Below are positions 37,456 through 55,490 of a DNA stretch of 64,000 nt, in pieces (the stretch's first letter is position 1; each line of letters opens with the position of its first letter). The position numbers were made by a program, and so were the translations under genes. The notes under the pieces were generated by a model. The model saw nothing but the letters and a program-made list of their open reading frames with translations, searched no databases and had not been told where the DNA came from. This stretch comes from Jiangella muralis (GTDB taxonomy: Bacteria; Actinomycetota; Actinomycetes; Jiangellales; Jiangellaceae), in NCBI RefSeq assembly GCF_001270745.1, contig NZ_KQ434751.1, positions 1-64,000 on the forward strand, read 5' to 3'.

Positions 37456-37475
37456 ATTACGGTCCGGACCGTAAT
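37456..37475. promoter_or_regulatory. Operator, site 1 (TACGGTC palindrome)
   Basis: ATTACGGTCCGGACCGTAAT is a perfect 20-bp palindrome 13 bases upstream of the propeller 1 start. On the minus strand TACGGT within it serves as a -10 box. Related sites are at 46801-46816 and 55475-55490. Confidence 0.8.
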
Positions 37476-37512
37476 GTCTAGGTTTGAGGCGCCCCACTGC
37501 GTTTCGCGAGGT

Positions 37513-37550
37513 GTGCTCCGCACCCACGAGGCCGGCGCGCTGCGTGCCGG
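37513..37550 (+). pseudogene. Fragment of aspS 5' end
   Basis: 35 of 38 bases match the first 38 bases of aspS (33716-33753), including the GTG start, encoding LRTHEAGALRAG. Similarity stops on both sides. It is a remnant of duplication or rearrangement, placed just upstream of the ABC-F gene. Confidence 0.8.
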
Positions 37551-37587
37551 AGCAGCCCCGGAGCTGACGCACCGGAAATCATTTGCC

Positions 37588-37654
37588 CGGGCGCGGGCGA
37601 GAGTGGCATCATCGATATCGATGTGATCTGACACGTGACTCTCGCCCGCGCCCG
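37588..37654 (+). promoter_or_regulatory. 17-bp inverted repeat in the ABC-F leader
   Basis: CGGGCGCGGGCGAGAGT (37588-37604) pairs perfectly with 37638-37654. The 33-base loop contains the palindrome CATCGATATCGATG (37610-37623). It lies about 50 bases before the ABC-F start and could act as an attenuator or operator; there is no U-run. Confidence 0.5.
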
Positions 37655-37702
37655 AGGTGTGTCCACCCGGCGGGCCCCCAGCAACCTCGTCGAGGTCGTC
37701 AC

Positions 37703-39343
37703 GTGTCTCTCCTCTCCGTACGCGCTGTTTCCATCTCCTACGCCGGCCGCCGGGTCCTCGACGGGGTCGGCTACGACGCCGCCGCGGGCGAGCGGCTGGG
37801 GATCGTCGGCGAGAACGGTGTCGGCAAGACGACGCTGCTGCGGTTGTCGGCCGGGGTGGAGCGGCCCGACTCCGGCGCCGTCGAGCGGCACGGCACCCTC
37901 GGCTACCTCACCCAGGAGCCCGACCTGCCGGCCGGCGGCACCGTCGACGATGCCGTCGACGCCGCGCTGGCGGAGTTCCGCGTCCTCGAGCAGCGCATGC
38001 GCGCCGCCGAGGCGCGGCTCGCCGACGGCGACCAGTCGGTGCTGGACGAGTACGGCGACCTGCTGGCCGAGTTCGAGCACCGCGACGGCTGGTCGGCCGA
38101 CGCCCGGGCGGCCCGCGCGCTGGCCGGGCTCGGCCTGGCCGACGTCGCGGGGGAGCGGCCGGTCGACACGCTGTCCGGCGGCCAGCGGTCCCGGCTGGCG
38201 CTGGCGCTCGCGCTGGTGCGGGCGCCCGACGTGTTGCTGCTGGACGAGCCGACGAACCACCTCGACGACGACGCGATCGCGTTCCTCGAGGAGGCGCTGC
38301 GGGCGCACCGCGGCGCCGTCGTCGTCGTCTCGCACGACCGCGCGTTCCTCGACGGCGTCGCGACGTCCATCCTCGACCTCGACCCGGCGCTGACGGTCGA
38401 CCGCGACGGCGCCCCGCACATCGGCCCGGCCCGCTACACCGGCACATACACCGATTACCTGGCCGGCAAGGCCGCCGCCCGGGCCCGGTGGGAGCAGGCG
38501 TACGCCACCTGGACCGACGACGTCGACGCCGCGCGCGCCGTCGTCAAGCAGGACGCTCGCCGGGTCGGCCACGAGGGCCGCGGCCGTCGCGACAACGACA
38601 AGTTCGTGGCGTACTTCCTCAGCCAGAAGGTCGACGCGGCGGTGTCGCGGCGGGTCCGCGACGCCGAGAGCCGGCTACGCCGGCTGGAGGAACTGCGCAT
38701 CCCGAAGCCGCCGCGGCTGCTGACGTTCGATGCCGCGCTCGGCGCCGACGTGCCCGACGGCGTGCTGATCGCCGTCCGCGACGTCAAGGTGCGCGGCCGC
38801 ATCGCCGCCCGCGCGCTGGACGTCACCCGCGACACGCGGCTGATGATCACCGGCCGCAACGGCTCCGGCAAGTCGTCGCTGCTGGCGGTGCTGGCCGGGG
38901 CGCTGGAGCCGGAGACCGGTGACGTGCTGCGGTCGCGCCGGCTGCGGATCGGCTGGCTGCCGCAGACCGGCAGTTTCGCCGACCTGGAGCTGACGGCGGT
39001 GCAGGCGTTCGCGGCCGGCCGCCCCGGCCCGGCGGACGAGTACCAGGCCGAACTGGCCGGCCTCGGCCTGCTGCCCGGCCCGGCGCTCGCGTCCCCGGTC
39101 GGCGCGCTGTCGGTCGGCCAGCAGCGGCGGCTCGCGCTGGCCCGGCTGCTGGTGACGCGGCCGCAGGTGCTGCTCCTCGACGAGCCGACGAACCACCTGT
39201 CGCTGGGGCTGGTCGAGGAACTCGAGGCGGCGGTCGACGGCGCCGGCCTGGCGGTCGTCGTGGTGACGCACGACCGGTGGGCGCGGCGCCGCTGGCAGGG
39301 CGAACGCGCCGAGGTTGTCCACAACGAGCTGCTGCTCGGCTAG
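37703..39343 (+). CDS. ABC-F family ribosome-protection ATPase
   Basis: A 546-residue soluble protein with two ABC domains and no membrane segments. Walker A motifs are GENGVGKTTLL (about residue 35) and GRNGSGKSSLL (about 387). Signatures are LSGGQRSRLALA and LSVGQQRRLALA, and Walker B motifs are LLLDEPTNHLD and LLLDEPTNHLS. The linker between domains is typical of antibiotic-resistance ABC-F proteins, which displace macrolides, lincosamides or streptogramins from ribosomes. GTG 37703 is preceded by GAGG. An Erm gene lies 4 kb downstream and a decayed ABC-F copy at 40010-40120. Confidence 0.9.
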   Translation: MSLLSVRAVSISYAGRRVLDGVGYDAAAGERLGIVGENGVGKTTLLRLSAGVERPDSGAVERHGTLGYLTQEPDLPAGGTVDDAVDAALAEFRVLEQRMRAAEARLADGDQSVLDEYGDLLAEFEHRDGWSADARAARALAGLGLADVAGERPVDTLSGGQRSRLALALALVRAPDVLLLDEPTNHLDDDAIAFLEEALRAHRGAVVVVSHDRAFLDGVATSILDLDPALTVDRDGAPHIGPARYTGTYTDYLAGKAAARARWEQAYATWTDDVDAARAVVKQDARRVGHEGRGRRDNDKFVAYFLSQKVDAAVSRRVRDAESRLRRLEELRIPKPPRLLTFDAALGADVPDGVLIAVRDVKVRGRIAARALDVTRDTRLMITGRNGSGKSSLLAVLAGALEPETGDVLRSRRLRIGWLPQTGSFADLELTAVQAFAAGRPGPADEYQAELAGLGLLPGPALASPVGALSVGQQRRLALARLLVTRPQVLLLDEPTNHLSLGLVEELEAAVDGAGLAVVVVTHDRWARRRWQGERAEVVHNELLLG

Positions 39344-39427
39344 TTGTCCACAATTCGCGGATCGGCGAGTGCGGCGCGTGCTGATCCGAGGGAGCGTCAG
39401 TGGCGACCGAGCCCGGAAAGGGGCACC

Positions 39428-39982: not shown

Positions 39983-40009
39983 GGCCGGCCGGTTGGCTGC
40001 AACCAGCGG

Positions 40010-40120
40010 GGTGCAGGCGTTCGCGGTCGGCCGCTCCGGCCCGGCGGAGGAGTACCAGGCCGAACTGGCCGGCCGCAGGGCGAACGCGCCGAGGTCGTCG
40101 ACGGCGGACTGCTGCGGTGA
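40010..40120 (+). pseudogene. Internally deleted remnant of an ABC-F gene
   Basis: Bases 40013-40072 match ABC-F bases 39001-39060 with 3 differences. From 40075 the match jumps to ABC-F 39295 onwards (GCAGGGCGAACGCGCCGAGG), so about 234 bases are missing. It ends in its own stop (CTGCTGCGGTGA), different from the intact gene's ending. It is therefore the relic of a paralogue, not a copying error of the neighbour. Confidence 0.85.
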
Positions 40121-41717: not shown

Positions 41718-42635
41718 ATGCCACGGCACTCCCGCACCCACCAGCGCCCGAACCGCCAGAACCGTCCCGGCCGCCGCACCGGCACCCGCGACGAGCCGAA
41801 CCACGCCGGCATCCACCTGCTCCGGGACCCGTCGGTCAGCGCTCGCATGGTGCGCTCGTCCGGCGCCGGGCCGGGCGACCTGGTCATCGAACTGGGCGCC
41901 GGGCTCGGCGCGCTGACCGCGCCGCTGGCGGCCACCGGCGCCCGCGTCATCGCCGTCGAACGCGACCCGCGGTTCGTGGCGAAGCTGGAGCGGCGCTTCG
42001 CCGACGCCGGCGAGGTGCGCGTGGTCGAGGCCGACGCGCGCAGCGTCATGCTGCCGCGCCGCCCCTACTCCGTGGTCGCGAACATCCCGTACGCCATCTC
42101 GACGGCGCTGCTGCGCCGGCTGCTGGACCCGGAGGCGACGTCGGTCGAGAGCGCGGACCTGCTGGTCGAGTGGGGGTTCGCCAAGCGCATGACGGAGGCC
42201 CGGCCACGTGACCTGGAGGTGGCGTGGTGGCAGGCCCGGTTCGAGCTGAGCATAGCCGGACGGGTCCGGCCGGGCAGCTTCCGGCCGGCGCCGTCGGTCG
42301 ACTCCGCGCACCTGGTGATCCGCCGCCGCCCGGACGTGTCGCGGCCGCAGGCCCGGCTGGCCCGCAAGCTGCTGCAGGACGCCTACCGTGCGCCGCGGCG
42401 GCCGGCCCGCGAGGTCCTCGGGGCGCACGTGCCGAAGAAGCGCGCCCACCGGTTGCTCACGTCGACCGGGATCGACCCGCCGGTCGTCGCCGGGACCATC
42501 CCGACGACGACCTGGCTGGCGCTGGCCGGTGAGCTCAGCGCCGATGCCGCGGATGCAGGTCGAACCGGGCCAGCTGACGGCCGGCGACGCCCCACGCCTT
42601 CCAGCCCCGCTCGAACTCCAGCTGAGGAACGGTGA
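41718..42635 (+). CDS. Erm-type 23S rRNA (adenine-N6) methyltransferase
   Basis: A 305-residue Rossmann-fold methyltransferase of the Erm/KsgA family. After a basic N-terminus (QRPNRQNRPGRR) come IHLLRDPSVSARMVR, the SAM site VIELGAGLGALTAPLAATGA, VIAVERDP and the catalytic VVANIPYAIST (N-I-P-Y). Erm enzymes methylate A2058 and block macrolide, lincosamide and streptogramin B binding. The leader peptide and hairpins upstream favour Erm over KsgA. The upstream frame is closed by a stop at 41709, so ATG 41718 is the first start. The last 30 residues are low complexity and overlap the convergent propeller gene by 101 bases. Confidence 0.88.
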   Translation: MPRHSRTHQRPNRQNRPGRRTGTRDEPNHAGIHLLRDPSVSARMVRSSGAGPGDLVIELGAGLGALTAPLAATGARVIAVERDPRFVAKLERRFADAGEVRVVEADARSVMLPRRPYSVVANIPYAISTALLRRLLDPEATSVESADLLVEWGFAKRMTEARPRDLEVAWWQARFELSIAGRVRPGSFRPAPSVDSAHLVIRRRPDVSRPQARLARKLLQDAYRAPRRPAREVLGAHVPKKRAHRLLTSTGIDPPVVAGTIPTTTWLALAGELSADAADAGRTGPADGRRRPTPSSPARTPAEER

Positions 42636-44484
42636 ACCAGCTGGCGACGAGCGGCCCGGCCAGTTGCTCCGCGTCGTGGTCGGGCCGCAGCCGGTAGAGG
42701 TAGTCGCCGAAGTTGGTCGCCGCGAAGACCTGGTCGTTGTGCACGACGATCTCGCCGTAGCCGCTGAGCTTGCCCTGACGGACGACGGTGCCGGTGGCGA
42801 GGTCCAGCGCGAACCAGGTGCCGCTCACCCGCTTGTACACGCCGTACAGGAACCCGTCGTGCACCTCGACGTGCTGGAGGCTGGCCTGCCCGGCGATCGG
42901 CTCGGCCCGCCACAGCACCGTCCGGGTCTCCAGGTCGAACGCGGCCACCTGCGCGGCCGGCTGCGTCGGTGTGGCGCCGCCGCCTCCCCAGGTGTCGCCG
43001 GCCAGGTACGCGATGCCGTCGTGCAAGGTCACCGACATGACGCCCTGATCCGGCAGCACGCCGACGTAGGCGTCCATCGCGCCGGTCTCGAGGTCCAGTA
43101 CGGTCAGCGCGCCGTTCAGCCGGCCGGTCCCCGGCGCCGACGCGACGAGGAGCAGGCCGCGCTCGGCGTCGAGGGCCAGCTCCCACGGACGCTGCTGGTC
43201 GTTCCCGAGCAGGCCCAGCGACGTGACGGTGTCGGTGGCCGGGTCGACGCTGATCAGCTCGCCGCTCGGGTAGAGGGCGGCCAGCACCCGGCCCTGGTGC
43301 GGCTGCATCGCCTTGACCTCGCCGGCCACCCGGATCCGGCGCGGCTCGGCGCCGGCCCACGGCCGGTGCACGGTGAGGTAGAAGTGCCCGCCCACGTACG
43401 CGGCGCTGCCGTCGTACGCGATCGACTGGACGAGATCGGGACCGGCCACGCCGGCCTGCTCGGTGAGGTCGAACGTCTCGGTGTCGCCAGTGGCCAGGTC
43501 GTGGAACCACAGCGTCCCGCTGCCGCCGCCGCCCAGCAGCACCGACCCGTCGCGCAGCGAGATGCCACGGGTCTCGTCGCCCACGTTGACGGTGCCCACC
43601 TGCTCGAGCGCGTCGCCGACCCGCCGGTACAGCGCGCCGGTGCGGCGCGCGGCGCCCAGCAACTCGCCCGACGGTGTCAGCGTCAACGCGTCGATCATGG
43701 TCGACGGCTCGGGCGGGGCGATCACCTTGTAGTCGGATCCGTCGGGCGCGAGATCGAGCACCTGGCCGCCGGCCGAGACGAGCACCCGGCCGCCGGTCGC
43801 GATGATCGGGTCGACCGACCCGGCCCGTTCCAGCTCCGCCGGGTAGATGTCGCGCTTCGCCCCGGTGGCGCGGTCGACGGCGATGACGTGGCGCAGCGGC
43901 GTCGTGCCCACGTACACCGTCGTGTCGTCGGCGGCGACGACCCGGGCGAACTGGGTGTCCGTGGCCACCCGGCCGAGGTTGCGCAGCACCCCGGTGTCGG
44001 GCCGGTACTCCCAGAGCTCGCAGCGCGGCGATGTGCCCGCGTACACCGTGCCGTCGGGCGCCGTCGTCAGACACCAGACGAAGCCGCCGGACGGCCCAAT
44101 GGTGCCGAGGAGCTCGACCTCGCCGGTGGCGGGGTCGTAGCGGTAGAGGTCGGGGGTCGGGTAGGTGCCGACGTAGACCTGCCCGCCGGAGATCGTGCAG
44201 GCCCAGCCGCCGTCGCCGCGGTCGAGCCGGTCGATCCGGGTCACGGTCCGGCTGGCCAGGTCGACGGTGACGATCTTGGGCGGGGTCTGGCCCCGGGTCA
44301 CGATGTAGCCGGTGTCGCCCTCGACCGCCATGCCGACGACGGCCGCCGTCACGGCCGCGGGCCCGAACAGCTCCGGCGCCGGCGCGCCCGCGGCGGCAGC
44401 GGTGCCCGCGACCCCCGGCAGGATCGGCAGGGCGCCGGCCGCGGCGGCGGCGGACAGGAACGTGCGGCGGCTGAGTTCGGTCAT
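42535..44484 (-). CDS. Tat-exported beta-propeller protein 2
   Basis: A 649-residue protein with leader MTELSRRTFLSAAAAAGALP (twin arginine). Blades repeat the pattern YVGT...LYRYDPATGEV, LWEYRPDTGVL, LISVDPATDTV and AAFDLETRTVLW. It resembles propeller protein 1 throughout and has no recognised catalytic motif. Its ATG overlaps the stop of the upstream propeller gene (ATGA), so the two are translated together. The frame appears open far upstream, but that is an antisense artefact inside the neighbour. The 3' end overlaps the Erm tail. Confidence 0.87.
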   Translation of the reverse strand: MTELSRRTFLSAAAAAGALPILPGVAGTAAAAGAPAPELFGPAAVTAAVVGMAVEGDTGYIVTRGQTPPKIVTVDLASRTVTRIDRLDRGDGGWACTISGGQVYVGTYPTPDLYRYDPATGEVELLGTIGPSGGFVWCLTTAPDGTVYAGTSPRCELWEYRPDTGVLRNLGRVATDTQFARVVAADDTTVYVGTTPLRHVIAVDRATGAKRDIYPAELERAGSVDPIIATGGRVLVSAGGQVLDLAPDGSDYKVIAPPEPSTMIDALTLTPSGELLGAARRTGALYRRVGDALEQVGTVNVGDETRGISLRDGSVLLGGGGSGTLWFHDLATGDTETFDLTEQAGVAGPDLVQSIAYDGSAAYVGGHFYLTVHRPWAGAEPRRIRVAGEVKAMQPHQGRVLAALYPSGELISVDPATDTVTSLGLLGNDQQRPWELALDAERGLLLVASAPGTGRLNGALTVLDLETGAMDAYVGVLPDQGVMSVTLHDGIAYLAGDTWGGGGATPTQPAAQVAAFDLETRTVLWRAEPIAGQASLQHVEVHDGFLYGVYKRVSGTWFALDLATGTVVRQGKLSGYGEIVVHNDQVFAATNFGDYLYRLRPDHDAEQLAGPLVASWFTVPQLEFERGWKAWGVAGRQLARFDLHPRHRR

Positions 44485-46754
44485 CGGGAGGTCCTCTCCG
44501 GAGCGGTGACGGTGACGGTCTCGGACACCTCGACGGCGCCTCGCGGCAGCGACGGGTGGGTGACGCCGGTGATGTCGACGGTGACGGCGTCCGCGTCGGG
44601 CACGGTGCGGCGCAGCACGCAGCTGCCGTCGTCGCCGGTCACGCAGGTGGTGGCCCGGTCGGGCCGCCACGCGGCCGACACGCTGGCGCCGGCCAGCGGG
44701 GCACCGTCGCGGTCCAGCACGGTGACGGTGACGAACGCCTGCCACAGCCGGGACCGGTCCGGGTGGCCCACCCACGACGACGTCGCCGACGCGGACACCG
44801 GGGCGAACAGCTCGCCGGGCACGTCGAGACGCACGAGCGTGCGGCCCTGCACGGCGAACAGCGCCGTGCCGTCCGGCGTCGCGGCGACCGAGGGCGGGCC
44901 GTACCACTCGCCGGCGAGGCCGGTGTAGACGGTCGAGACGACCGGCGCGCCCGGTTCGGGCCAGGTCAGCCGGAAGATCGACTTGCCGTCGGTCGTGTAG
45001 ACGCCGGTGGCCGACGGCGTCAGGATCGACGCGTTGACGCCCAGGGCGTGCTCCCACCGCACCGCGCCGGTCGCGGGGTCGAGCCCGAACAGCCGGCCGG
45101 TCGAGGTCAGGCCGACCAGCTCGGCGCCGATCAGCTGGAGATCGCCGACGACGGTGGCGCCGGCGGGTGCGGGCACCGACCAGCGCACCGCGCCGGTGTC
45201 CGCGTCGACGGCGGCGACCTCGGCACGGGTCGCGATCGGGGTGGTGCCGTTGCCGGTCTTGATGTCGCTGCCGATATAGACGGTGCCGCCCTCGGCGGTG
45301 ACGGCGGAGATCGTCTGGTCCTCGACGATGTCGCGGTAGACGTCGAGACCGCCGTTCGCGGTGTCGTACACGGCCAGCGCGCCGCCGTAGCGGCCGTAGT
45401 CCGGCTCGGTGCCGACGTAGAGCCGGCCAGTGCCGTCGTCGAGGAACGAGTCGCGCGGCCGGGTCTGCTCGTGGCCGATCTCCGCGAGTGGACGCACGGG
45501 CCCGGCGACCGAGGGCAGCTCGTAGATCAGCGCCCTGGTGTAGACGGACAGATAGACGGTGTCGCCGGCAGGCCACAGCGACTTCGCCTCGCCGGGGACG
45601 AAGACCCTGCTGCTGGTGCCGGTGGCGAGGTCGTGGATCTGGACGCCGCCGGAGCCGGACACGTACACGTGCTCGCCGTCGGTGGCCAGCGCCATCGGCC
45701 CTTCCGGGCTCGGGGTGACGCCGGCGGCGTCCAGCGGCAGCCCGGTGACGGCGCCGTCGCCCGGGTCGTAGGCATAGGCGAGGCCGTCGACCAGGCCCCA
45801 GACCCGGCCGTCGTGGAAGGTGAGGCCGCTGGCCGCCTTCTCCGGCGCCGGTACGGCCAGCGCCTCGGCGGTGCCCGACCACAGGTCGTAGCCGTACAGC
45901 GTTCCCGACGGGCGGGCGGCGAAGTAGGCGCGGCCCGGCTCGCCACCGGTGACCGCGACGACGAACGTCTCCGCCGGCGCCTGGACCAGCTCGTACCGGG
46001 ACGGGTCCGCGGTGTCCAGCGCGAGCAGCTGGCCGCGCGGCGAGATGCCACCGAGCAGCACGCCGTCGTGCAGGGCCAGCGACGACACGAAGGTGGCGCC
46101 GGCGAGGTCCGGGGGAGTGAGGTCGGTGACCTCGAGGGTGGCCCGGTCGATGCGCACCAGCGACGCGGCCGAGCCGATGCCGGCGTAGAGGTAGCGCTCG
46201 TCGGACACCAGCGCACGCACGTAGTCCTGGCCCGGCACGGTCACGCCCAGGTCGGTGACGGCCCCGGTGGCCGGGTCGTAGGCGAAGATCCGCCCGCCGG
46301 ACGACTCGAAGGTCCCGGCGTACACCATGCCGTCGGGTGCGACGGTCAGCGCGTAGACGACCGCGCCGGAGCCGCCGGCCGTCAGGATCTCCTCGGCCGT
46401 GCCGGTCACGGTGTCGACGCGGAAGAGCTTGGCCGGCGTGTACGTGCCGACGTAGACATCGGTGCCGGACACCGCGCTGACCCAGGCGCCGGATCCGGCC
46501 GGCAGTGGGATCTGGTCGACCGCGAGACCGGTGGCCGGGTCCAGCCCGATCAGGGCCGGCGGTTTGGCCTGCCGGGTCGAGAACCACAGCACGTCGCCGA
46601 TGAAGTCACCCGAGCCCGTCGGCGTCGCCACGCTGGCCGGCCCGAGCGGCTCGGCGGTCCACGCCGCGTCCTCGGCTGGTGTGGACGCGGCCGCAGGCCA
46701 TGGCACCAGCAACGAGAGCACGAGCACGAGTAGGGCGAGCAGACGTGGACGCAT
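44481..46754 (-). CDS. Secreted beta-propeller protein 3 with C-terminal Ig-like domain
   Basis: A 757-residue protein. A Sec-type signal peptide (LLALLVLVLSLLVPWPAAAS) is followed by about 600 residues of propeller blades (FAYDPATGAV, RIDRATLEV, LDPATGAVRW). The last 120 residues (AFVTVTVLDRDGAPLAGASV) look like an Ig-like or carboxypeptidase-regulatory-like domain with a cysteine pair (CVTGDDGSCVL). GGAGG precedes the ATG by 5 bases. It is the first gene of a two-gene operon with propeller 2, divergent from the sugar ABC operon. Confidence 0.87.
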   Translation of the reverse strand: MRPRLLALLVLVLSLLVPWPAAASTPAEDAAWTAEPLGPASVATPTGSGDFIGDVLWFSTRQAKPPALIGLDPATGLAVDQIPLPAGSGAWVSAVSGTDVYVGTYTPAKLFRVDTVTGTAEEILTAGGSGAVVYALTVAPDGMVYAGTFESSGGRIFAYDPATGAVTDLGVTVPGQDYVRALVSDERYLYAGIGSAASLVRIDRATLEVTDLTPPDLAGATFVSSLALHDGVLLGGISPRGQLLALDTADPSRYELVQAPAETFVVAVTGGEPGRAYFAARPSGTLYGYDLWSGTAEALAVPAPEKAASGLTFHDGRVWGLVDGLAYAYDPGDGAVTGLPLDAAGVTPSPEGPMALATDGEHVYVSGSGGVQIHDLATGTSSRVFVPGEAKSLWPAGDTVYLSVYTRALIYELPSVAGPVRPLAEIGHEQTRPRDSFLDDGTGRLYVGTEPDYGRYGGALAVYDTANGGLDVYRDIVEDQTISAVTAEGGTVYIGSDIKTGNGTTPIATRAEVAAVDADTGAVRWSVPAPAGATVVGDLQLIGAELVGLTSTGRLFGLDPATGAVRWEHALGVNASILTPSATGVYTTDGKSIFRLTWPEPGAPVVSTVYTGLAGEWYGPPSVAATPDGTALFAVQGRTLVRLDVPGELFAPVSASATSSWVGHPDRSRLWQAFVTVTVLDRDGAPLAGASVSAAWRPDRATTCVTGDDGSCVLRRTVPDADAVTVDITGVTHPSLPRGAVEVSETVTVTAPERTSR

Positions 46755-46780: not shown

Positions 46781-46816
46781 AGCGTAGCCGCGCCGATATA
46801 TACGGTCAAGGCCGTT
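46781..46816 (-). promoter_or_regulatory. Promoter of the propeller 2/3 operon with operator site 2
   Basis: On the minus strand TTGACC (46809-46804), a 17-base spacer and TACGCT (46786-46781) form a good promoter. The -35 lies inside TACGGTCAAGGCCGTT (46801-46816), which matches the TACGGTC palindrome with two changes. Confidence 0.7.
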
Positions 46817-46874
46817 ATTATGGGTTGCTGGATATCGATCGGCGAACAACCCGCGACGCGCGGCCCGCGGCACC

Positions 46875-46948: not shown

Positions 46949-48211
46949 GTGCGAGTTCGAAGTGTGGCAGTCGCGGCGGCAGCCGCGCTGACCGTGGCCG
47001 CGTGCGGCGGGTCTGATGACGACACGGCCGGTGGTGATGGTGGCGGCTCGGCCGAGGTCACGGTGTGGATGTACCCGGTCATTCCGGACCAGGACGCCAG
47101 CATCGCGTTCTGGGACCAGGTCGAGGCCGACTTCGAGGCCGAGCACGACGACATCGACCTGACCATCGAGCAGCAGCCGTGGGAGGGCAGGGACGAGAAG
47201 ATCGCCACCGCGATCGCCTCCGGCCAGGGCCCGGACCTCGTGCTGCTCACGCCCGACCAGACCCTGCAGTACCAGGTCAGCGGCGGCCTGAAGCCGCTCG
47301 ACGGCGCCGTCGAGGACGACCGCGACGCCTACCTGCCGAGCGCGCTGGACGTCGTCACCTTCGAGGACGAGCTGTACGGTGTGCCGATCTACCACACCAG
47401 CACCACGACGGCCTACAACATGGCCGCGTTCCAGGCGGCCGGCTTCACCGAGCCGCCGGCCACGTGGGACGACGTCATGGCGGCGGCGCCCGCGCTGGCG
47501 GCGAACGGCGTCTCGGTCCTCGACTACTCCGGCTCCCCGGAGACGACGCTGAACCTCACCTTCTACCCGCTGTTGTGGCAGGCCGGCGGCACCGTCTTCA
47601 CCGAGGACGGCTCCGACGTGGCCTTCGACGGGCCGGAGGGCCTGGAGGCGCTGCAGTTCCTGCTCGACCTCCAGGAGGCCGGCGGGCTGCCGGCCGAGGC
47701 GGCGACGAAGACGAACCTCGTCGACGGCGGGCCGCTGACCACGGGCGCGACGGCCATGACGTACTCCATCACGCTGCCGGACATCCAGATCATGCGCACC
47801 AGCCTCGGCGCCGAGAACGTGGTGGTCGGCGCGCCGCTGGCCGGCGAAGAGCAGGTGAGCTTCGGCATCCCCGGCGTCCTGGCGCTGACCAGTATCAACG
47901 ACGACGAGGATGCGGCGTACGAGGTGGCGTCGTTCATCGCGAGCCCGGACGTCAACGCGGCGCTGAACGCGGAGGCCGGCACGTTCCCGGCCCGCACCGA
48001 CGTCGAGGACCCCACCGGCGACGACGCGCTGGCGACGCTCAGCGACGCGCTGCAGTACGCTCGCCCGGGCGAGGTCGAGCCGACCTCCCGTCAGGTCATG
48101 ACGGTGCTATCGGCGCAGCTGCAGGCCGCTCTGCAGGGCTCGAAGTCGCCCGAGGACGCGCTGGCCGACGCCGCCTCGGAGGCGCGCGACCTGATCGCCC
48201 GTGGCGGCTGA
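46949..48211 (+). CDS. Sugar ABC transporter substrate-binding lipoprotein
   Basis: A 420-residue family 1 solute-binding protein. The signal peptide ends in a lipobox (LTVAAC, Cys near residue 21), so it is anchored to the outer face of the membrane. Typical sequence features are VTVWMYPVIPD near the start, GQGPDLVLLTPDQTLQYQ, and GVPIYHTSTTTAYNM. AAGGAGGA precedes the GTG. It heads an operon of importer, hydrolase and aminotransferase genes. The substrate is unknown; family members bind oligosaccharides or sugar derivatives. Confidence 0.92.
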   Translation: MRVRSVAVAAAAALTVAACGGSDDDTAGGDGGGSAEVTVWMYPVIPDQDASIAFWDQVEADFEAEHDDIDLTIEQQPWEGRDEKIATAIASGQGPDLVLLTPDQTLQYQVSGGLKPLDGAVEDDRDAYLPSALDVVTFEDELYGVPIYHTSTTTAYNMAAFQAAGFTEPPATWDDVMAAAPALAANGVSVLDYSGSPETTLNLTFYPLLWQAGGTVFTEDGSDVAFDGPEGLEALQFLLDLQEAGGLPAEAATKTNLVDGGPLTTGATAMTYSITLPDIQIMRTSLGAENVVVGAPLAGEEQVSFGIPGVLALTSINDDEDAAYEVASFIASPDVNAALNAEAGTFPARTDVEDPTGDDALATLSDALQYARPGEVEPTSRQVMTVLSAQLQAALQGSKSPEDALADAASEARDLIARGG

Positions 48212-48286
48212 CGCCCCGGCCGACACCGCCGTGACCAGGGCGGCCGCCGACGCGGCGGCCGCCCTGTGGCGGGCGAGGAGAACCGA

Positions 48287-49192
48287 ATGACGTTGCAACG
48301 CACGGCACCGCCTCGCCCGACGTGGCGGCAGCGGGTCCGCGACCCGGGCTGGGGCGTGATCTTCGTCCTGCCCATGCTCGTGCTGTTCGTGATCTTCCGG
48401 TTCGTGCCGAGCCTCGGCGCCGTCGGGATGAGCTTCACCGACTACCGGCTGAGCGGGGACTTCGAGTTCATCGGCGCGGAGAACTACCGCCGGCTGATCG
48501 AGGACGACCTGTTCTTCGACAGCCTGCGCGTCACGCTGATGTACGCGCTGATGTACGTGCCGCTGACGCTGGTGGTGTCGTTGGGCACGGCGACGATGCT
48601 GCACCACGTGATCCGCGGCCGGGGGCTGTTCCGCGGGCTGTTGTTCCTGCCGTACGTCACCTCGTTCGTCATGGCCGGCATCATCTGGATCTGGATCTAC
48701 GACACCGACGGCCTGATCAACGGCGCGCTGGAGCGCGTCGGCCTCGGGCCGGTGCCGTTCATCACCGGCAACCAGGCGATGGTGCTGGGGTCGCTGGCCG
48801 TGGTGTCGGTGTGGAAGAGCTTCGGGTACTCGATGCTCATCCTGCTGGCCGGGTTGAAGAACATCCCCGAGGACGTCATGGAGGCGGCGACGCTCGACGG
48901 CGCCGGCGCGGGGGCGAAGTTCCGCCGCATCACGCTGCCGCTGCTGAAACCGGTGCTCTTCTTCGTGGTGGTCATCGAGACGATCGTGGCGTTCCAGGTG
49001 TTCGACACGATCTACGTCATGACCGGCGGCGGTCCGGCCCGCGCGTCGTACGGATTGGTGTACATGCTGTACGACCAGGGCTTCAAGTTCTTCGACTTCG
49101 GCTACGCCGCCACCATCGGCGTCATGCTGTTCCTCGTGGTCCTCGCGATCTCGCTGGTGCAGCGCTACGTCCTGGACCGGGAGAACACGTGA
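48287..49192 (+). CDS. Sugar ABC transporter permease (MalF type)
   Basis: A 301-residue membrane protein with six predicted helices and the EAA loop EDVMEAATLDGAGAGAKFRRI near residue 200, which contacts the ATPase. AGGAGA precedes ATG 48287. The second permease begins on its stop (GTGA). Confidence 0.94.
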   Translation: MTLQRTAPPRPTWRQRVRDPGWGVIFVLPMLVLFVIFRFVPSLGAVGMSFTDYRLSGDFEFIGAENYRRLIEDDLFFDSLRVTLMYALMYVPLTLVVSLGTATMLHHVIRGRGLFRGLLFLPYVTSFVMAGIIWIWIYDTDGLINGALERVGLGPVPFITGNQAMVLGSLAVVSVWKSFGYSMLILLAGLKNIPEDVMEAATLDGAGAGAKFRRITLPLLKPVLFFVVVIETIVAFQVFDTIYVMTGGGPARASYGLVYMLYDQGFKFFDFGYAATIGVMLFLVVLAISLVQRYVLDRENT

Positions 49193-50061
49193 CCACGCTC
49201 ACCGCACCGCCCGCGACGGCGACGACGCGGCCGCCCACGCGGAAGCGCCGACGCCGTTCCGGGGCCAACGCCTGGCTGACCGTCCTGCTGATCCTGGCGT
49301 CGGTCTTCACCGTGCTGCCGTTCATCGCGGTGTTCGTGCTGGCGATCACGCCCGAGGGCGCGCAGACCATCCCGCAGAAGATGCCGGACGAGGTGACGCT
49401 GGACAACCTGTCCGCGGTGCTGTCGGCGTCGTCGTTCCTGCGCTGGACGCTGAACTCGTTCGTCTTCTCGATCGTCTCCGTGGTGATCATCCTGCTGGCG
49501 GCCGCGATGGCCGGGTACGCCTTCGCCCGCAAGCGGTTCCCGGGCAGCAACGCGCTGATGTGGTCGTTCCTCGCGACGCTGATGGTGCCGGCGCAGGCCA
49601 CGCTGATCCCGATGTTCGTGCTGGTGTCGCGGATGGAGGGCGTCAACACGTTCTGGGGGCTGATCGTCCCGACGCTGGCGAACTCGCAGTCGGTCTTCCT
49701 GATGCGGCAGTTCATCAAGGACCTGCCCGACGACCTGTTCGACGCGGCGAAGATCGACGGCGCGGGGGAGTGGACGGTGTTCTGGCGGCTGGTGCTGCCG
49801 CTCACCAAGCCGGTCCTGGCGACGTTGGGCATCTTCGTGTTCCTGTGGCACTGGAACGACTTCCTGTGGCCGCTGGTGATCGCGCAGACCGACGACATGC
49901 GCACGCTGACGGTCGGCCTGTCGACGCTGAACGCCGAGACGGTGACGCGGGCGCGCATCATGGCGTCGGCGGCCATCAGCGTGGTCCCGTGCCTGATCAT
50001 CTTCGGCGTGTTGCAGCGATACCTGGTGAACAGCATCGCGACGACCGGTTTGAAGGGCTGA
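49189..50061 (+). CDS. Sugar ABC transporter permease (MalG type)
   Basis: A 290-residue membrane protein with a basic, Thr/Pro-rich N-terminus and six helices. The EAA loop is DLFDAAKIDGAGEWTVFWRL near residue 188. No ATPase gene is in this operon; actinobacterial importers of this class commonly share a general MsiK-type ATPase encoded elsewhere. Confidence 0.94.
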   Translation: MTTLTAPPATATTRPPTRKRRRRSGANAWLTVLLILASVFTVLPFIAVFVLAITPEGAQTIPQKMPDEVTLDNLSAVLSASSFLRWTLNSFVFSIVSVVIILLAAAMAGYAFARKRFPGSNALMWSFLATLMVPAQATLIPMFVLVSRMEGVNTFWGLIVPTLANSQSVFLMRQFIKDLPDDLFDAAKIDGAGEWTVFWRLVLPLTKPVLATLGIFVFLWHWNDFLWPLVIAQTDDMRTLTVGLSTLNAETVTRARIMASAAISVVPCLIIFGVLQRYLVNSIATTGLKG

Positions 50062-50070
50062 CACCCCCTA

Positions 50071-50793
50071 GTGCGGATCTTCGACGCCCACCGGCTGCTC
50101 GGCCCGATCCCCGGCGACCACGTGCCGTCCGCGGACGTCGCGGGGCTGCTCGCGGAGTTGGACCACCTCGGCATCGACGGCGCCGCCGTCACGCCGAGCG
50201 GCGGGCTGTACGGCGACCCCGCCACCGAGCAGCCCGCCGAGGCCCGGCACGAGCGGCTGGTCACCGTCCCGGTCGTCCTGCCCGCGGTGCCCGGGGCCGG
50301 CTGGCCGGGCGACCCGGGCATCGTCGTCGCGTCCGCACCGGCGATGGTGCGGGCCTGCCCGGTGCGGCACCGGTTCGCGCTGACCGGGCCGGTGGCGCTG
50401 GGCTGGTGGCAGGAGCTGGCCGCGGCCGGCATCCCGCTGGCGCTGGACGCCGGCGAGACCGGCCTGGACCGCATCCGCGCCCTGCTGACGGCGGTGCCGG
50501 AGCTGCGGGTGCTGGTGCTCTCGCCCGGCTACCGGTCGCTGCGCGAACTGGCCGAGTTGCTGGCCGCCCACCCGGGCGCGTCCGTCGAGACCGGCACGCT
50601 GGTCGCGGCCGGCGCGATCGAGTGGCTGGCCCGCCGGGCCGGCGCGCACCGGCTGGTGTTCGGCACCGGGGCGCCGGTGTGGGACGACGCCGGCCCGCGG
50701 TTCCAGCTGGAGCACCTGCGGCTGCCGGACGCGGACGTCGAGCTGATCGCCTCCGGCTCGTTCGACGCGCTGCGGGCGGGGGAGCGGCCATGA
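50071..50793 (+). CDS. Amidohydrolase-like protein lacking metal ligands (module 1)
   Basis: A 240-residue protein with a reduced TIM-barrel amidohydrolase shape: MRIFDAHRLLGP at the start and AGAHRLVFGTGAPVW at the end. The HxH of the first strand is replaced (DAHRLLG), and the later His and Asp ligands are absent or changed. It directly precedes an intact amidohydrolase with a 4-base overlap (ATGA). The same pairing of a defective and an intact protein recurs at 60116-61584. It may be a partner subunit. GTG 50071 is 9 bases after the permease stop. Confidence 0.75.
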   Translation: MRIFDAHRLLGPIPGDHVPSADVAGLLAELDHLGIDGAAVTPSGGLYGDPATEQPAEARHERLVTVPVVLPAVPGAGWPGDPGIVVASAPAMVRACPVRHRFALTGPVALGWWQELAAAGIPLALDAGETGLDRIRALLTAVPELRVLVLSPGYRSLRELAELLAAHPGASVETGTLVAAGAIEWLARRAGAHRLVFGTGAPVWDDAGPRFQLEHLRLPDADVELIASGSFDALRAGERP

Positions 50794-51569
50794 GCCCGGT
50801 CATCGATGCGCACGGCCACGTCGGCGCGTGGGCGGACTTCTTCGTGCCCGAGCCGGACGCGGCCTGGCTGCTGGACACCAACGCGGCGATCGGCATCGAC
50901 GCGGTCGGCGTGTCGCACCTGCTCGCCGTCGGCCGCGACACCGTCGCCGGCAACGAGCTGGCGCTCGCGGAGGCCGACCGGTACCCGGACCGGCTCGGCG
51001 TCTGGCTGGTCGCCGACCCGCACCATCCGGACGCGGCCGCGCTGCTGCGCGACCAGCTGGACCGGCCCGGCGTCTGGGGCCTGAAGCTGCATCCGGACAC
51101 CCACCTGTGCCCGGCGACCGACCCGCGGTACGAGCCGCTGCTCGAGCTGGCCGCCGCGGCGGGCGTCCCGGTGCTGTCGCACGGGCAGACCCGCTCGCCG
51201 TACTCCGACCCCGGTGACCTCGCCGAGCTGGCCCGCCGCCACCCGGACGTCGCGCTGCTCGTCGGGCACGCCGGGCTGTGGCCGGACGGCTACGACAGCG
51301 CCGCGCGACTGGCCGCCGCCCAGCCGAACCTGTACCTGGAGATCTGCGGCTCCCGGCTCACCACCCGCTGGCTGGAGCGCATGGTCGCGATCGCCGGCGC
51401 GGACCGGGTGCTGTTCGGCACCGACGCGTGCTTCCTCGACCCGCGGCCGGGCCTGGGGAAGGTACGCCTGGCCCGTTTGTCAGACGCCGACCGCGCGCTG
51501 GTGCTGGGCGGCAACGCCGCCCGGCTGCTCGGCCGGCGCCTTCCCACCGCCCTGCAGGAGATGCCATGA
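50790..51569 (+). CDS. Amidohydrolase 2-family metal-dependent hydrolase (module 1)
   Basis: A 259-residue TIM-barrel hydrolase with complete metal ligands: DAHGH (HxH) at residues 6-10, KLHPDTH near 95, LLVGHAGLW near 155 and LFGTDACF near 210. Such enzymes hydrolyse or decarboxylate ring compounds and lactones; the substrate is unknown. It overlaps the genes on both sides by 4 bases. Confidence 0.88.
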   Translation: MSPVIDAHGHVGAWADFFVPEPDAAWLLDTNAAIGIDAVGVSHLLAVGRDTVAGNELALAEADRYPDRLGVWLVADPHHPDAAALLRDQLDRPGVWGLKLHPDTHLCPATDPRYEPLLELAAAAGVPVLSHGQTRSPYSDPGDLAELARRHPDVALLVGHAGLWPDGYDSAARLAAAQPNLYLEICGSRLTTRWLERMVAIAGADRVLFGTDACFLDPRPGLGKVRLARLSDADRALVLGGNAARLLGRRLPTALQEMP

Positions 51570-52747
51570 CGACCCTCGCGATCGACGGCGGCACGCCCGT
51601 CCGCACCGCACCCTGGCCGGCCTGGCCGCCGCCCGCGTCGGACGCGCAGCGCAAGTTGCTCGCCGAGGTGGTCGACAGCGGGCACTGGGGCGCGACGTCC
51701 GGACCGCTGTGCGAGCGGCTGGCCGCGGAGTTCGCCGGGCGGCACGGCGCGAAGCACGGCGTCGTGCTGACGAACGGCACGCTGGCGCTGTTCGTGGCGC
51801 TGCGCGCGGCCGGCGTCCGGCCCGGCGACGAGGTGGTCGTGCCGGCCTACACGTTCGTCGCCTGCGCGACGGCGGTGCTGCTGCTCGGCGCGGTGCCGGT
51901 GGTCGCCGACGTCGACCCCGGCCACCTGCACCTGACGGCCGGCACCGTCCGGCCGGCACTGACCGACCGGACCCGCGCCGTCATGCCCGTCCACCTGGCC
52001 GGCAGCCCGGCGCCGCTGGACGAGCTGCTGGCGCTGGCCGCCGAGCACGGGCTGGCCGTCATCGAGGACAGCGCGCAGGCGCACGGTGCGTCCTACCGCG
52101 GCCGGCCGGTCGGGTCGCACGGGACGGCGGGGACGTTCAGCTTCCAGTCCAGCAAGGCGATGACGGCCGGCGAGGGCGGGCTGATCGTCACGAACGATGA
52201 CGACCTGGCCGCCCGCGTGTGGTCGGCCTGCAACGTCGGCCGGGTCCGCGACGGCGCCTGGTACCACCACGCCGAGGTCGGCTGGAACCTGCGCATGACG
52301 GAGCTGCAGGCGGCGCTGCTGCTGCCGTGGCTGGACCGCCTGGACGACGAGGTCGCCGCGCGCGACGCGTTCGCCCGGCGGGTGGCGGCCGGCCTGGCCG
52401 CCGCGGACCGCCCGGTCGCGGTGGTGCCGCAGCCCGCCGGGACGACGGCCGACTCGCGGCACCTGCTGATGCTGCGGGCCGCGCCGGGCGTCGATCGCGA
52501 CTGGGTGAGCCGCGCCCTGGAGGCCGAGGGCGTGCCCGTCGACGCCGGTTACCCGCCGCTGGGCGGGCTGGAGCCGCTGCGGGGCCTGGCCCGGGCGCTG
52601 CCGGCGCCCGGCGCGGAGGGCGCCGCCGCGACGGTGTTCTGGTTGCGCCAGCCGCAGCTGATGGCCGGACCGGACGGCGCCGACGACGTCATCGCCGCGG
52701 CGGAGCGGGTGTTCGGCGACGACCGGGCCTTCCCGGCGTCCCGGTGA
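51566..52747 (+). CDS. DegT/DnrJ/EryC1 PLP-dependent aminotransferase (module 1)
   Basis: A 393-residue sugar-aminotransferase family protein. It begins TLAIDGGTPVRT, as does the paralogue at 58887. The PLP lysine lies in FSFQSSKAMTAGEGG near residue 195, with the preceding Asp in VIEDSAQAHG. The family transaminates keto-sugars or keto-cyclitols. Placement behind an importer and hydrolases argues for a catabolic role, by inference. It is the last gene of the operon. Confidence 0.92.
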   Translation: MTTLAIDGGTPVRTAPWPAWPPPASDAQRKLLAEVVDSGHWGATSGPLCERLAAEFAGRHGAKHGVVLTNGTLALFVALRAAGVRPGDEVVVPAYTFVACATAVLLLGAVPVVADVDPGHLHLTAGTVRPALTDRTRAVMPVHLAGSPAPLDELLALAAEHGLAVIEDSAQAHGASYRGRPVGSHGTAGTFSFQSSKAMTAGEGGLIVTNDDDLAARVWSACNVGRVRDGAWYHHAEVGWNLRMTELQAALLLPWLDRLDDEVAARDAFARRVAAGLAAADRPVAVVPQPAGTTADSRHLLMLRAAPGVDRDWVSRALEAEGVPVDAGYPPLGGLEPLRGLARALPAPGAEGAAATVFWLRQPQLMAGPDGADDVIAAAERVFGDDRAFPASR

Positions 52748-53728: not shown

Positions 53729-53737
53729 GCTAGACGG

Positions 53738-54937
53738 TCACCGGACCGTCGTCCGGGCGTCGTCCGACACGGTGGCCAGGCGGCGCCGGCGCCTGGGCCG
53801 GCCGAACGCCGCCGGGTGCTTGGTTCCCTGCAGCGCCCCCCATTGGATGCCCGCCTTGATCCGCACGGCCTTCCGGCCGCGCACGAACGTCGGCCTGGCC
53901 TGCGCGGCGCCGTCGATCAGCTGCAGGATCCCGTCGCGCCGTCCGAGGCTGATGGCGTTGTACCAGTAGACGAGCTTGACGTTCGCGATCTCGCGGCCGG
54001 TCAGGCGTCCCACGATCGCCTCGATGGCCTGCCGGCCGGTGAAGCCGGCCGAACCGCAGTTCATCGGCAGCTGCCGGCCGTTCTCGCCGATGATGTGGAC
54101 GCTGTCGCCGACGGCGTAGACGTCCGGGTGCGAGACCGACCGCATGGTGCGATCGACGACGATCTGACCGTTCTCGGTGACCTCCAGGCCGCTCGCGGCG
54201 GCGATGGGGCTGACGGCGAACCCGGCCGTCCACACCGTCGCGTCGGACGCCAGGACGGTGCCGTCGGCGCACCGCACCCGCGTGGCCTCGACGGCTTCGA
54301 CGCCGGTGTGCTCCAGCACGGTGATGCCCAGCCGGTCGCAGGCCCGGCGCAGGTGGTCGCGGGCGCCGTCGGAGAGCCGGGCGGCCAGCTCGCCGCGGGC
54401 GAGCAGCGACACCGACAACCCGGGCCGGGCCTCGGCGATCTCGGTGGCGGTCTCGATGCCGGTCAGCCCGTCGCCGACGACCAGCACCGTGCCGCCGTCG
54501 CCCCGGGCGTCCAGGCCGTCCAGGTGCTCGCGCAGCCGCAGCGCGGACGGCCGGCCGGCGACGTCGAAGGCGTGCTCGGCCACCCCGGGCACGATGTGGC
54601 CGGCGACGTGGCTGCCCAGCGCGTACACCAGCGTGTCGTAGCCGACCTCGCCACCGCCGTCGGCGTCGGCCACCGCGACGACCCGGCGCTCGGGGTCGAC
54701 GGCGGTGACCCGGGCCAGCCGCAGCTGGATCTGCGTGCCCGCGAAGACCTCGGTGAGCGGCGGGGCCGGGACCTCCCGGCCGGCTGCGAGCTGGTTCAGC
54801 CGCTGCCGCTGGACGAAGTCCGGCGCGGCGTTGACCACGGTGATCTCGGTGTCCGCCGGGGACAGCCGGCGGGCCAGGTTCCCGGCCACGTAGGCCCCGG
54901 CGTAGCCGGCGCCGAGAACGACGATGCGGTGCTTCAT
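53738..54937 (-). CDS. NADH dehydrogenase-like FAD oxidoreductase
   Basis: A 399-residue type II NADH dehydrogenase-like flavoprotein. The N-terminal FAD site is VVLGAGYAGAYVAGNLARR, the NADH site VLVVGDGLTGIETATEIAE near residue 152, and the second FAD contact YAVGDSVHI near 273. No transmembrane anchor is seen. AGGAG precedes the ATG at 54937; the frame open to 55105 is not used. It is probably the target gene of the ECF41 factor, which it precedes on the same strand. Confidence 0.9.
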   Translation of the reverse strand: MKHRIVVLGAGYAGAYVAGNLARRLSPADTEITVVNAAPDFVQRQRLNQLAAGREVPAPPLTEVFAGTQIQLRLARVTAVDPERRVVAVADADGGGEVGYDTLVYALGSHVAGHIVPGVAEHAFDVAGRPSALRLREHLDGLDARGDGGTVLVVGDGLTGIETATEIAEARPGLSVSLLARGELAARLSDGARDHLRRACDRLGITVLEHTGVEAVEATRVRCADGTVLASDATVWTAGFAVSPIAAASGLEVTENGQIVVDRTMRSVSHPDVYAVGDSVHIIGENGRQLPMNCGSAGFTGRQAIEAIVGRLTGREIANVKLVYWYNAISLGRRDGILQLIDGAAQARPTFVRGRKAVRIKAGIQWGALQGTKHPAAFGRPRRRRRLATVSDDARTTVR

Positions 54938-55285
54938 GTGTGCTGCTCCTGTCGGTCCGTTCTGCTCGTCGTGAGTTGAACGGGACAGCCCTCCGATTCC
55001 TGACAGGAACCGCATGACACAGGTCACAGTCGATCTCGTGCTCGTGCCCCGGCCCGGGCTCGGCGGGTGGGGAGTTGTCGGCGCGGGGGGTGACCAGGGC
55101 GCCAACAGTTGGCGCTGGCGTCAACACGCCGGATCGTGATCGGGCGGGCGGGGGATGACGTACCGCGACACAACCGGACGAACCCCCGGGCGCCGTCCCT
55201 CAATGTGAGACTTCCGCTTGCGCGTTCCCGGGCGGTCGGGACGATCATGGAGCCAGCGTTGTCCCCACCACTGCAGGGAGTGGCG
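54938..55285. other. Intergenic region with a strong palindrome
   Basis: No gene seen. Apart from the ECF41-like promoter it holds GCGCCAAC-A-GTTGGCGC (55099-55115), a perfect 8-bp inverted repeat, with a related half-pair GGCGTCAACACGCC just after it. This could be an operator for the small membrane protein gene downstream. Confidence 0.5.
54979..55005 (-). promoter_or_regulatory. Candidate ECF41 promoter
   Basis: On the minus strand TGTCAGG (55005-54999), 16 bases, then CGTT (54982-54979). This resembles the reported ECF41 pattern TGTCACA-N16-CGTC. It lies about 40 bases before the oxidoreductase start, the expected target. Confidence 0.6.
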
Positions 55286-55423
55286 ATGGGTCAGAAGCTG
55301 GCTAAGAGGTTCATGGTCGCGTTCGGACTAGGGCTGTTGCTGGCCCTGATCTTCGACCATTCCGCGGCGGGCTTCGCCGTGGGGTTCGCCATCGTCTACG
55401 GGGCCGGCCTGGCCGCCGAATAA
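55286..55423 (+). CDS. Small membrane protein, 45 residues
   Basis: Starts at ATG after GGGAG (55276-55280), MGQKLAKRFMVAFGLGLLLA. It has a short basic N-terminus and one or two short hydrophobic segments (VAFGLGLLLALIFDH and AVGFAIVYGAGLAAE). Length, RBS and composition support a real small protein. It is not recognised as a known family. Confidence 0.6.
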   Translation: MGQKLAKRFMVAFGLGLLLALIFDHSAAGFAVGFAIVYGAGLAAE

Positions 55424-55450
55424 CCGCCCGTTTCAGCGCAAGTTCCCGTC

Positions 55451-55490
55451 TTGACATCATCCTGCTCCGACAAATACGGTCTAGACCGTA
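55451..55490 (+). promoter_or_regulatory. Promoter of the epimerase-aldolase operon with operator site 3
   Basis: TTGACA (55451-55456), an 18-base spacer and TACGGT (55475-55480) form a strong promoter. The -10 is the left half of the perfect palindrome TACGGTCTAGACCGTA (55475-55490), so a bound repressor would block it directly. Confidence 0.8.

What the first reader, a model, noticed from the sequence alone, without database searches (positions are those of the whole stretch)
37456..55490. One palindromic operator at three promoters of beta-propeller and epimerase-aldolase genes
TACGGTC-CG-GACCGTA type palindromes occur at 37458-37473 (perfect, extended to 20 bp), 46801-46816 (two changes) and 55475-55490 (perfect). 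Each overlaps a promoter: -10 of propeller gene 1, -35 of the propeller 2/3 operon, -10 of the epimerase-aldolase operon. Exact palindromes of this kind placed only at these promoters imply one repressor and one regulon across 18 kb. The 55-kb copy contains the GGTCTAGACC core also seen in GntR-family (DasR) sites, with different flanks.
Basis: partly seen in the sequence, partly recalled or inferred. Interest (0 to 1): 0.82.

Follow-up and report, generated by a model that had tools for sequence, protein, structure and literature searches.

The report
Shared operator of a sugar-catabolism regulon
A short mirror-image DNA switch sits on the promoters of several sugar-use genes in a soil actinobacterium; it recurs at the same kinds of genes in distant relatives, together with one unusual regulator protein that very probably binds it and turns the genes off.

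Summary
TTACGGTC-NN-GACCGTAA sites lie at 37457-37474, 46800-46817 (degenerate) and 55474-55491. The genome has no other site with fewer than 2 changes (16-base core), and 0 of 100 shuffles of the window reach three sites. They sit on promoter elements: between -35 and -10 of propeller 1, on the -35 of propellers 2/3, on the -10 of the epimerase/aldolase operon. They are conserved at orthologous promoters in Jiangella, Haloactinopolyspora and Actinophytocola, and recur at the related cluster in an unnamed genus g24 (probably Streptomyces) used as a fresh test.

The GntR/DasR reading is not supported. The motif tracks a regulator gene in the cluster, here called REG (57580-58806, minus). Among 343 g24 genomes, 10 of 12 with REG have the site (up to 1 change) against 17 of 331 without; all 12 REG loci carry a site with up to 2 changes. 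REG matched no named whole-protein family: its model shows a PrpR_N-like sensor, a GTP-cyclohydrolase-III/GGDEF-like domain and a C-terminal winged helix. A weak fourth site (58834-58851) lies between REG and its divergent neighbour.

Best explanation: REG is an autoregulated, effector-released repressor of a secreted-propeller and sugar or amino-sugar catabolism regulon. Binding, sign, effector and pathway are inferred.

The parts
37457..37474 (-). operator 1, TTACGGTCCGGACCGTAA (perfect 20-bp palindrome 37456-37475), fills the gap between the proposed -35 and -10 of propeller 1
   Evidence: conserved in 5 of 5 genomes where the gene was found (0-2 mismatches)
37475..37480 (-). proposed -35 of propeller 1, TAGACA
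   Evidence: TNGACA in 5 of 5 aligned promoters
37451..37456 (-). proposed -10 of propeller 1, TAGCAT
   Evidence: TANCAT in 5 of 5
35491..37443 (-). propeller 1, TAT-type signal, predicted double beta-propeller (650 aa)
46800..46817 (-). operator 2, degenerate (2 mismatches in the 16-base core); one half-site supplies the proposed -35 TTGACC of propellers 2/3
   Evidence: 6 of 6 genomes with full-length propeller 2 (1-3 mismatches)
46781..46786 (-). proposed -10 of propellers 2/3, TACGCT
44481..46754 (-). propeller 2
42535..44484 (-). propeller 3, same operon as propeller 2
46949..52747 (+). ABC transporter (binding protein, two permeases), two Amidohydro_2 genes, DegT aminotransferase 1; linked, but control by operator 2 not established
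55474..55491 (+). operator 3, ATACGGTCTAGACCGTAA, its first half TACGGT in the -10 position
   Evidence: 0-2 mismatches in 18 of 18 epimerase promoters compared (0-1 in the 14 of Jiangellaceae)
55451..55456 (+). proposed -35 of the epimerase operon, TTGACA
   Evidence: TTGAC in 18 of 18, spacer 18 bp in 17 and 17 bp in 1
55508..56530 (+). SDR/NAD-dependent epimerase family gene (start perhaps 55514)
56530..57564 (+). DHDPS-family aldolase
57580..58806 (-). REG, candidate cognate regulator: PrpR_N-like 1-197, GTP-cyclohydrolase-III/GGDEF-like about 200-308, C-terminal winged helix
58834..58851 (.). operator 4, degenerate (5 mismatches of 16), between REG and DegT2
58854..61584 (+). DegT aminotransferase 2 and two Amidohydro_2 genes, divergent from REG

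Best explanation
The palindromes are operators of one regulon whose cognate regulator is very probably REG (57580-58806, minus), encoded inside the cluster. A REG dimer binds TTACGGTC-NN-GACCGTAA through its C-terminal winged helices, over promoter elements, and so blocks RNA polymerase at the epimerase-aldolase operon and at the secreted-propeller genes, and more weakly at its own promoter shared with DegT2. A catabolite of the transported sugar, sensed by the PrpR_N-like domain and perhaps modulated by a nucleotide in the GTP-cyclohydrolase-III-like domain, would release it. Shown by sequence: the sites, their overlap with promoter-like elements, their conservation, and co-occurrence with REG. 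Inferred: that REG binds them, that it represses, dimer binding, the effector, and the pathway (uptake, DegT-type amino-group transfer, dehydrogenation, lactone hydrolysis, dehydration, aldol cleavage of a sugar or amino-sugar derivative).
For: Site counts against shuffles. Site at the epimerase in the window and in 13 of 13 fetched Jiangellaceae loci, in both Actinophytocola loci, in G144 and G359. Class-wide scan of 393 genomes: 23 of 31 places with up to 1 mismatch in the 18-mer lie upstream of an epimerase (14), a propeller (8) or a cluster DHDPS gene (1), all in 15 genomes with REG; the reversed control hits 4 genomes. Fresh genus g24: 10 of 12 REG-positive against 17 of 331 REG-negative genomes have the site (Fisher p 9e-11; exact 7 of 12 against 2 of 331, p 3e-10; shared ancestry ignored); 12 of 12 REG loci have a site with up to 2 mismatches; 14 non-Jiangella stretches of REG clusters hold 25 such sites in 281 kb against 0.33 in block shuffles. 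In G438 the cluster is split 1.3 Mb apart and both parts carry sites. Where the aldolase is present with only a distant REG (L091), no site with fewer than 5 mismatches lies in 21 kb. A weak copy in 17 of 17 REG promoters examined. Neither TetR gene of the window is conserved with the sites.
Against: No binding or expression data. 8 of 31 places and the 17 REG-negative g24 genomes carry unrelated single matches, some just upstream of other genes, one between an SDR and a divergent TetR gene (L194), so other proteins may bind such a motif. Nine further propellers of this genome have no site with up to 2 mismatches. Distant REG homologues show no common palindrome. In G359 REG is 21 kb away and a GntR-FCD gene is nearer to the site. 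Two sites in g24 (G438 4852075, G662 2665164) are not at an obvious promoter. REG and site share ancestry with the cluster, so co-occurrence is not proof.
Confidence: 0.78

Rival explanations
1. The sites are operators of a GntR-family (HutC/DasR-like or FadR-like) regulator encoded elsewhere.
For: GT and AC are 4 bases apart as in HutC motifs (PMC4494728); the 55-kb copy contains GGTCTAGACC; G359 has a GntR-FCD gene next to the site.
Against: Central TA not conserved and outer CGG constant; no GntR hit at E 0.001 among 40 window proteins; the site follows REG across genera. Co-occurrence with unlinked GntR genes was not tested.
Confidence: 0.07
2. The sites are operators of a TetR-family regulator (61549-62169 or the 40.8-41.3 kb gene, or one elsewhere).
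For: TetR operators are often such palindromes (own knowledge); a near-identical site lies beside an unrelated TetR gene in G482 (L194).
Against: The 61549 gene has close orthologues only in G000 and G005 plus a fragment in G014, of 22 genomes; the 40-kb gene has no tblastn match in the 23 fetched stretches; the site is conserved in genomes without them.
Confidence: 0.06
3. REG binds the sites but as an activator, or as both activator and repressor.
For: PrpR_N sensors are known from sigma-54 activators (PMC6615313, two passages).
Against: Sites overlap -10, -35 or spacer and, in four unlinked propeller genes, lie downstream of the proposed -10; none of those examined lies only upstream of -35. 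An 18-bp spacer filled by the operator (propeller 1) leaves open a MerR-like activation.
Confidence: 0.08
4. Chance or coding artefact.
For: Isolated matches occur in unrelated genomes.
Against: Shuffles and conservation.
Confidence: 0.01

Closest known systems
DasR/NagR (GntR family, HutC subfamily) and dre sites
   Same: Palindromic 16-bp operators at sugar-use genes, GGTCNNGACC core in some copies.
   Different: dre has TGG...CCA and a TA centre (PMC4398421 and PMC4494728, passages); here CGG...CCG with a free centre. REG has a C-terminal winged helix and no UbiC-like domain matched.
PrpR and other PrpR_N sigma-54 activators
   Same: N-terminal sensor fold: 2q5c Z 18.1 (184 residues, rmsd 2.6), 2pju Z 16.9 (182, rmsd 2.8).
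   Different: No AAA+ sigma-54 domain or PrpR_N family match in the Pfam scan; 408 aa with a different middle domain; promoters look sigma-70-like.
GTP cyclohydrolase III and GGDEF/adenylyl cyclase domains
   Same: Middle domain about 200-308: 2qv6 Z 11.5 (101 residues, rmsd 2.6), GGDEF and cyclase domains Z about 10.
   Different: No GGDEF/GGEEF string; catalytic activity not assessed; fused to a sensor and a winged helix.
LacI-type local sugar repressors
   Same: Works like one: cluster-encoded regulator, palindrome on promoter elements, sugar genes (by inference).
   Different: DNA-binding domain C-terminal and winged; LacI sensor cores match residues 1-197 only at rmsd about 6-8.

Membership tests
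GntR family, HutC subfamily (DasR) | Operator GTMTAKAC with conserved TA centre | tested here: not met
   centre varies in 42 distinct sites; consensus from PMC4494728 passages
GntR family, HutC subfamily (DasR) | N-terminal GntR winged helix in the cognate regulator | tested here: not met
   for the candidate REG: HTH is C-terminal (354-384); GntR model 14.7 bits against cut-off 27
GntR family, HutC subfamily (DasR) | Binding of the sites by a GntR protein of the genome | not testable with these tools
   needs protein and DNA in vitro
PrpR-type sigma-54 activators | PrpR_N sensor fold | tested here: met
   fold only: Z 18.1 and 16.9; no PF06506 match in the Pfam scan up to E 10, whose filters drop weak matches
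PrpR-type sigma-54 activators | AAA+ sigma-54 interaction domain | tested here: not met
   no such Pfam match; residues 200-308 model as a GTP-cyclohydrolase-III/GGDEF-like domain
TetR family | TetR_N domain in the conserved linked regulator | tested here: not met
   REG has none; window TetR genes not conserved with the sites
GGDEF / GTP cyclohydrolase III enzymes | Catalytic residues | tested here: inconclusive
   no GGDEF or GGEEF string; metal-binding residues not checked
LacI-type local repressor (mode of action) | Operator overlaps RNA polymerase contacts | tested here: met
   promoters proposed from sequence, not mapped
LacI-type local repressor (mode of action) | Direct binding and effector release | not testable with these tools
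   bench work

The most novel reading that the evidence does not exclude
REG founds an undescribed family of bacterial transcription factors that joins a PrpR_N-like metabolite sensor, a GTP-cyclohydrolase-III/cyclase-like domain and a C-terminal winged helix, with relatives from Actinomycetes to Bacillota. The middle domain senses (or makes) a nucleotide, so that catabolism of an unknown sugar or amino-sugar material handled by secreted double propellers is gated by both substrate and a nucleotide signal. The operator given here would be the first for the family.
Probability: 0.4. Interest if true: 0.65.

Novelty: new variant of a known kind. Interest (0 to 1): 0.5.

Why it matters
A local regulator with a palindromic operator is a well-known kind of thing. 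What is new is that the operator ties uncharacterised secreted double propellers, an SDR and a divergent aldolase (and, by linkage, DegT aminotransferases and amidohydrolases) into one regulon, and pairs it with a regulator whose domain build matched no named family in the scans made here. The pairing makes both directly testable: one gel shift would give the family its first operator, and the operator can be used to find further members of an unknown catabolic pathway. In other genomes it already points to unlinked propeller genes and to an enolase-superfamily gene.

Tried and rejected
GntR/DasR: set aside on motif form and co-occurrence; co-occurrence with unlinked GntR genes was not tested. 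TetR genes of the window: not conserved with the sites. Chance or coding sequence: rejected. Shared palindrome upstream of distant REG homologues: 26 REG loci looked at (most of them distant, a few close), no common motif; two Bacillales loci (L094, L095) share TACAGT-N7-ACTGTA about 275 bp upstream, left as a lead. Control of the ABC transporter by operator 2: not established, since genomes without propeller 2 show no site (up to 2 mismatches) near the binding-protein gene. Function of the propellers: the model of propeller 1 (9 sequences, pLDDT 87.4) matches only generic tandem propellers in the listed PDB rows (TMq up to 0.44); phmmer found one weak match (E 0.0022). In the model of REG, the C-terminal winged helix was not searched by itself. 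Literature: no paper on this regulator or operator found in the searches (motif letters) returned 109 papers, of which only the first 10 titles were seen, none relevant; only PMC6615313 was opened (passages). Micromonosporaceae contig L088 has epimerase, aldolase, REG and DegT2 but begins inside the epimerase gene, and shows no site; the truncated paralogue contig L086 shows none either. I did not search for the epimerase or aldolase in genomes without REG, beyond L091.

Rows dropped or chosen: palindromic places were counted once, not per strand. Alignment A1 held one row read on the wrong strand (L042) and was replaced by A2. One search used 14 chosen stretches. In one search three propeller-2 sites (3 mismatches) were taken as the best match in stretches of about 130 bp. 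The profile A2 includes distant rows, so its E-values are also strong for distant homologues in the family (G016-G021); 'strong' outside the family means E below 1e-110, a cut of my own. The genus g24 is unnamed in the tool; Streptomyces is my guess from genome size and the number of species.

Full report
Sequence check. The three palindromes are present as described. TACGGTCNNGACCGTA occurs exactly at 37458-37473 and 55475-55490 and with two changes at 46801-46816. Dinucleotide shuffles of the window give a mean of 0.15 matches at up to 2 changes (3 seen) and none exact in 100 shuffles (2 seen); at up to 3 changes the count is ordinary. In the whole 7.27-Mb genome 10 places match at up to 2 changes against 6 for the reversed control: the two exact ones, none with 1, and 8 with 2, one of them the 46801 copy. 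Of the 7 outside the window, 5 lie inside a called frame and 2 upstream of one.

Surroundings. The cluster has three secreted beta-propeller genes (35491-37443, 42535-44484, 44481-46754, minus), a sugar-type ABC transporter, two pairs of Amidohydro_2 genes, two DegT aminotransferases, an SDR/epimerase, a DHDPS-family aldolase (nearest curated models NanA and KdgD, far below their cut-offs) and REG. In genus g24 the operator precedes a luciferase-like/DHDPS divergent pair and, in L224, an enolase-superfamily gene. The set fits a sugar-acid type route with an amino-transfer step; that is an inference from families only.

Promoter anatomy. In 18 epimerase promoters TTGAC is invariant and lies 18 bp (17 bp in one) before TACGGT, the first half of the operator, which has the TANNNT form of a -10. 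In five propeller-1 promoters the 18-bp operator fills the gap between TNGACA and TANCAT. In six propeller-2 promoters the second half-site supplies TTGACC, followed by 17 bp and TACGCT in the window and L056, read directly, and by the same arrangement in the other four. In four unlinked propeller genes of other Jiangella the operator lies between a TAGGGT and the start codon. Different placements that all overlap likely RNA polymerase contacts fit a repressor.

Conservation. An exact 16-base site occurs in 12 of 22 family genomes: 11 of 12 of the genus and one of a second genus. The mapped loci show the site with 0-1 mismatch upstream of the epimerase in the window and in 13 of 13 fetched loci (G015 and G002 with 1 mismatch), at propeller 1 in 5 of 5 genomes where the gene was found in the stretches fetched (0-2 mismatches), and at propeller 2 in 6 of 6 with a full-length gene (1-3 mismatches). 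Both Actinophytocola loci have it at a propeller and at the epimerase (1-2 mismatches). Paralogous loci with tandem REG-like genes (44-47% identity) in Haloactinopolyspora alba and J. asiatica have TTACGGTAGCGACCGTTAT between divergent propellers.

Which regulator. Across 393 genomes of the class, REG-profile hits (E up to 1e-10) occur in 62 and the 18-mer with up to 1 change in 22, against 4 for the reversed control. Of 31 places, 23 are upstream of an epimerase (14), a propeller (8) or a cluster DHDPS gene (1), all in 15 genomes with REG; 8 are elsewhere, some of them directly upstream of unrelated genes. Outside the family the three genomes with the strongest REG hits (G144, G182, G359; E below 1e-110) all have the site 2 to 21 kb from REG; the other outside-family genomes with weaker REG hits (E about 1e-98 and above) have none near it, only G125 having an unlinked one. 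A set of 343 genomes of genus g24 has REG in 12 and the site in 27: 10 of 12 with REG, 17 of 331 without (p 9e-11); exact sites 7 of 12 against 2 of 331. G182 of this genus had already been seen; the other 11 REG genomes are new. These p values ignore shared ancestry. All 12 REG loci have a site with up to 2 changes (for G182, for 11). Of 16 places with up to 1 change in the 12 REG genomes, 15 are in the cluster stretches; two of these (G438 4852075, G662 2665164) are not at an obvious promoter. In G438 the cluster is split over 1.3 Mb and both parts carry sites. Conversely, Phytoactinopolyspora L091 has the aldolase (71%) with only a distant REG (29%) and nothing better than 5 mismatches in 21 kb. 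The two TetR genes of the window are not conserved with the sites.

Autoregulation. In the 12 Jiangella REG promoters the best 18-mer match has 4-5 mismatches of 16, at -45 or -46 (-87 in L059); in L064 and L152 it has 2; in L063, L083 and L084 4, 5 and 4. In each of the 17 at most 2.7% of 300 mononucleotide shuffles do as well. This is suggestive, not shown.

REG itself. Pfam gives only a borderline HTH_24 at residues 354-384, NCBIfam nothing at E 0.001, PDB sequences nothing up to E 10. The AlphaFold2 model (27 sequences, mean pLDDT 88.7, pTM 0.68) has residues 1-197 like 2q5c (Z 18.1) and PrpR 2pju (Z 16.9), about 200-308 like GTP cyclohydrolase III 2qv6 (Z 11.5) and GGDEF/cyclase domains (Z about 10), and a C-terminal helical unit with two strands, read here as a winged helix. 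PrpR_N domains are listed among sensors of sigma-54 activators (PMC6615313, two passages). Relatives at 21-30% identity reach Bacillota.

Against. Unrelated single matches exist, one between an SDR and a divergent TetR gene (L194), so motif likeness alone does not name the protein. Nine other propellers of this genome have no site with up to 2 mismatches. Distant REG homologues show no common palindrome. G359 has a GntR-FCD gene beside the site and REG 21 kb off. There are no binding or expression data.

Verdict. The operator and regulon are real with high confidence; REG as the cognate regulator is likely (about 0.8); repression is the likely sign; effector and pathway are open.

Noticed in passing
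window 37588-37604 and 37638-37654: A 17-bp perfect inverted repeat (CGGGCGCGGGCGAGAGT and its complement) upstream of the ABC-F-like gene at 37703, a possible leader hairpin (read by eye).
   Followed up: no
G000:C1:64971-71645 (just beyond the window) and G000 contigs C2, C6: Nine further propeller genes of the same kind in this genome, without the operator at up to 2 mismatches.
   Followed up: partly
L194:1501-1518 (G482): TTTCGGTCGAGACCGTAA between an SDR gene and a divergent TetR gene, no REG in that genome: another regulator may use a near-identical operator.
   Followed up: partly
L195:1501-1518 and seven other g24 genomes: TTGCGGTCGTGACCGTAA recurs in 8 of the 27 genomes, all without REG; in L195 it lies near the start of an alpha-amylase-domain gene, so perhaps a conserved coding stretch.
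   Followed up: partly
L094 and L095, about 275 bp upstream of REG homologues: Two Bacillales share TACAGT-N7-ACTGTA upstream of distant REG homologues, a possible operator of the distant branch.
   Followed up: no
window 41718-42635: An rRNA adenine dimethylase (Erm/KsgA-like) gene whose 3' end overlaps that of propeller 3; it stays next to the cluster in most related loci.
   Followed up: no
G398:C7:584179-585786: The REG gene is matched in two pieces with a gap between them, so it may be interrupted, while its operator remains.
   Followed up: no
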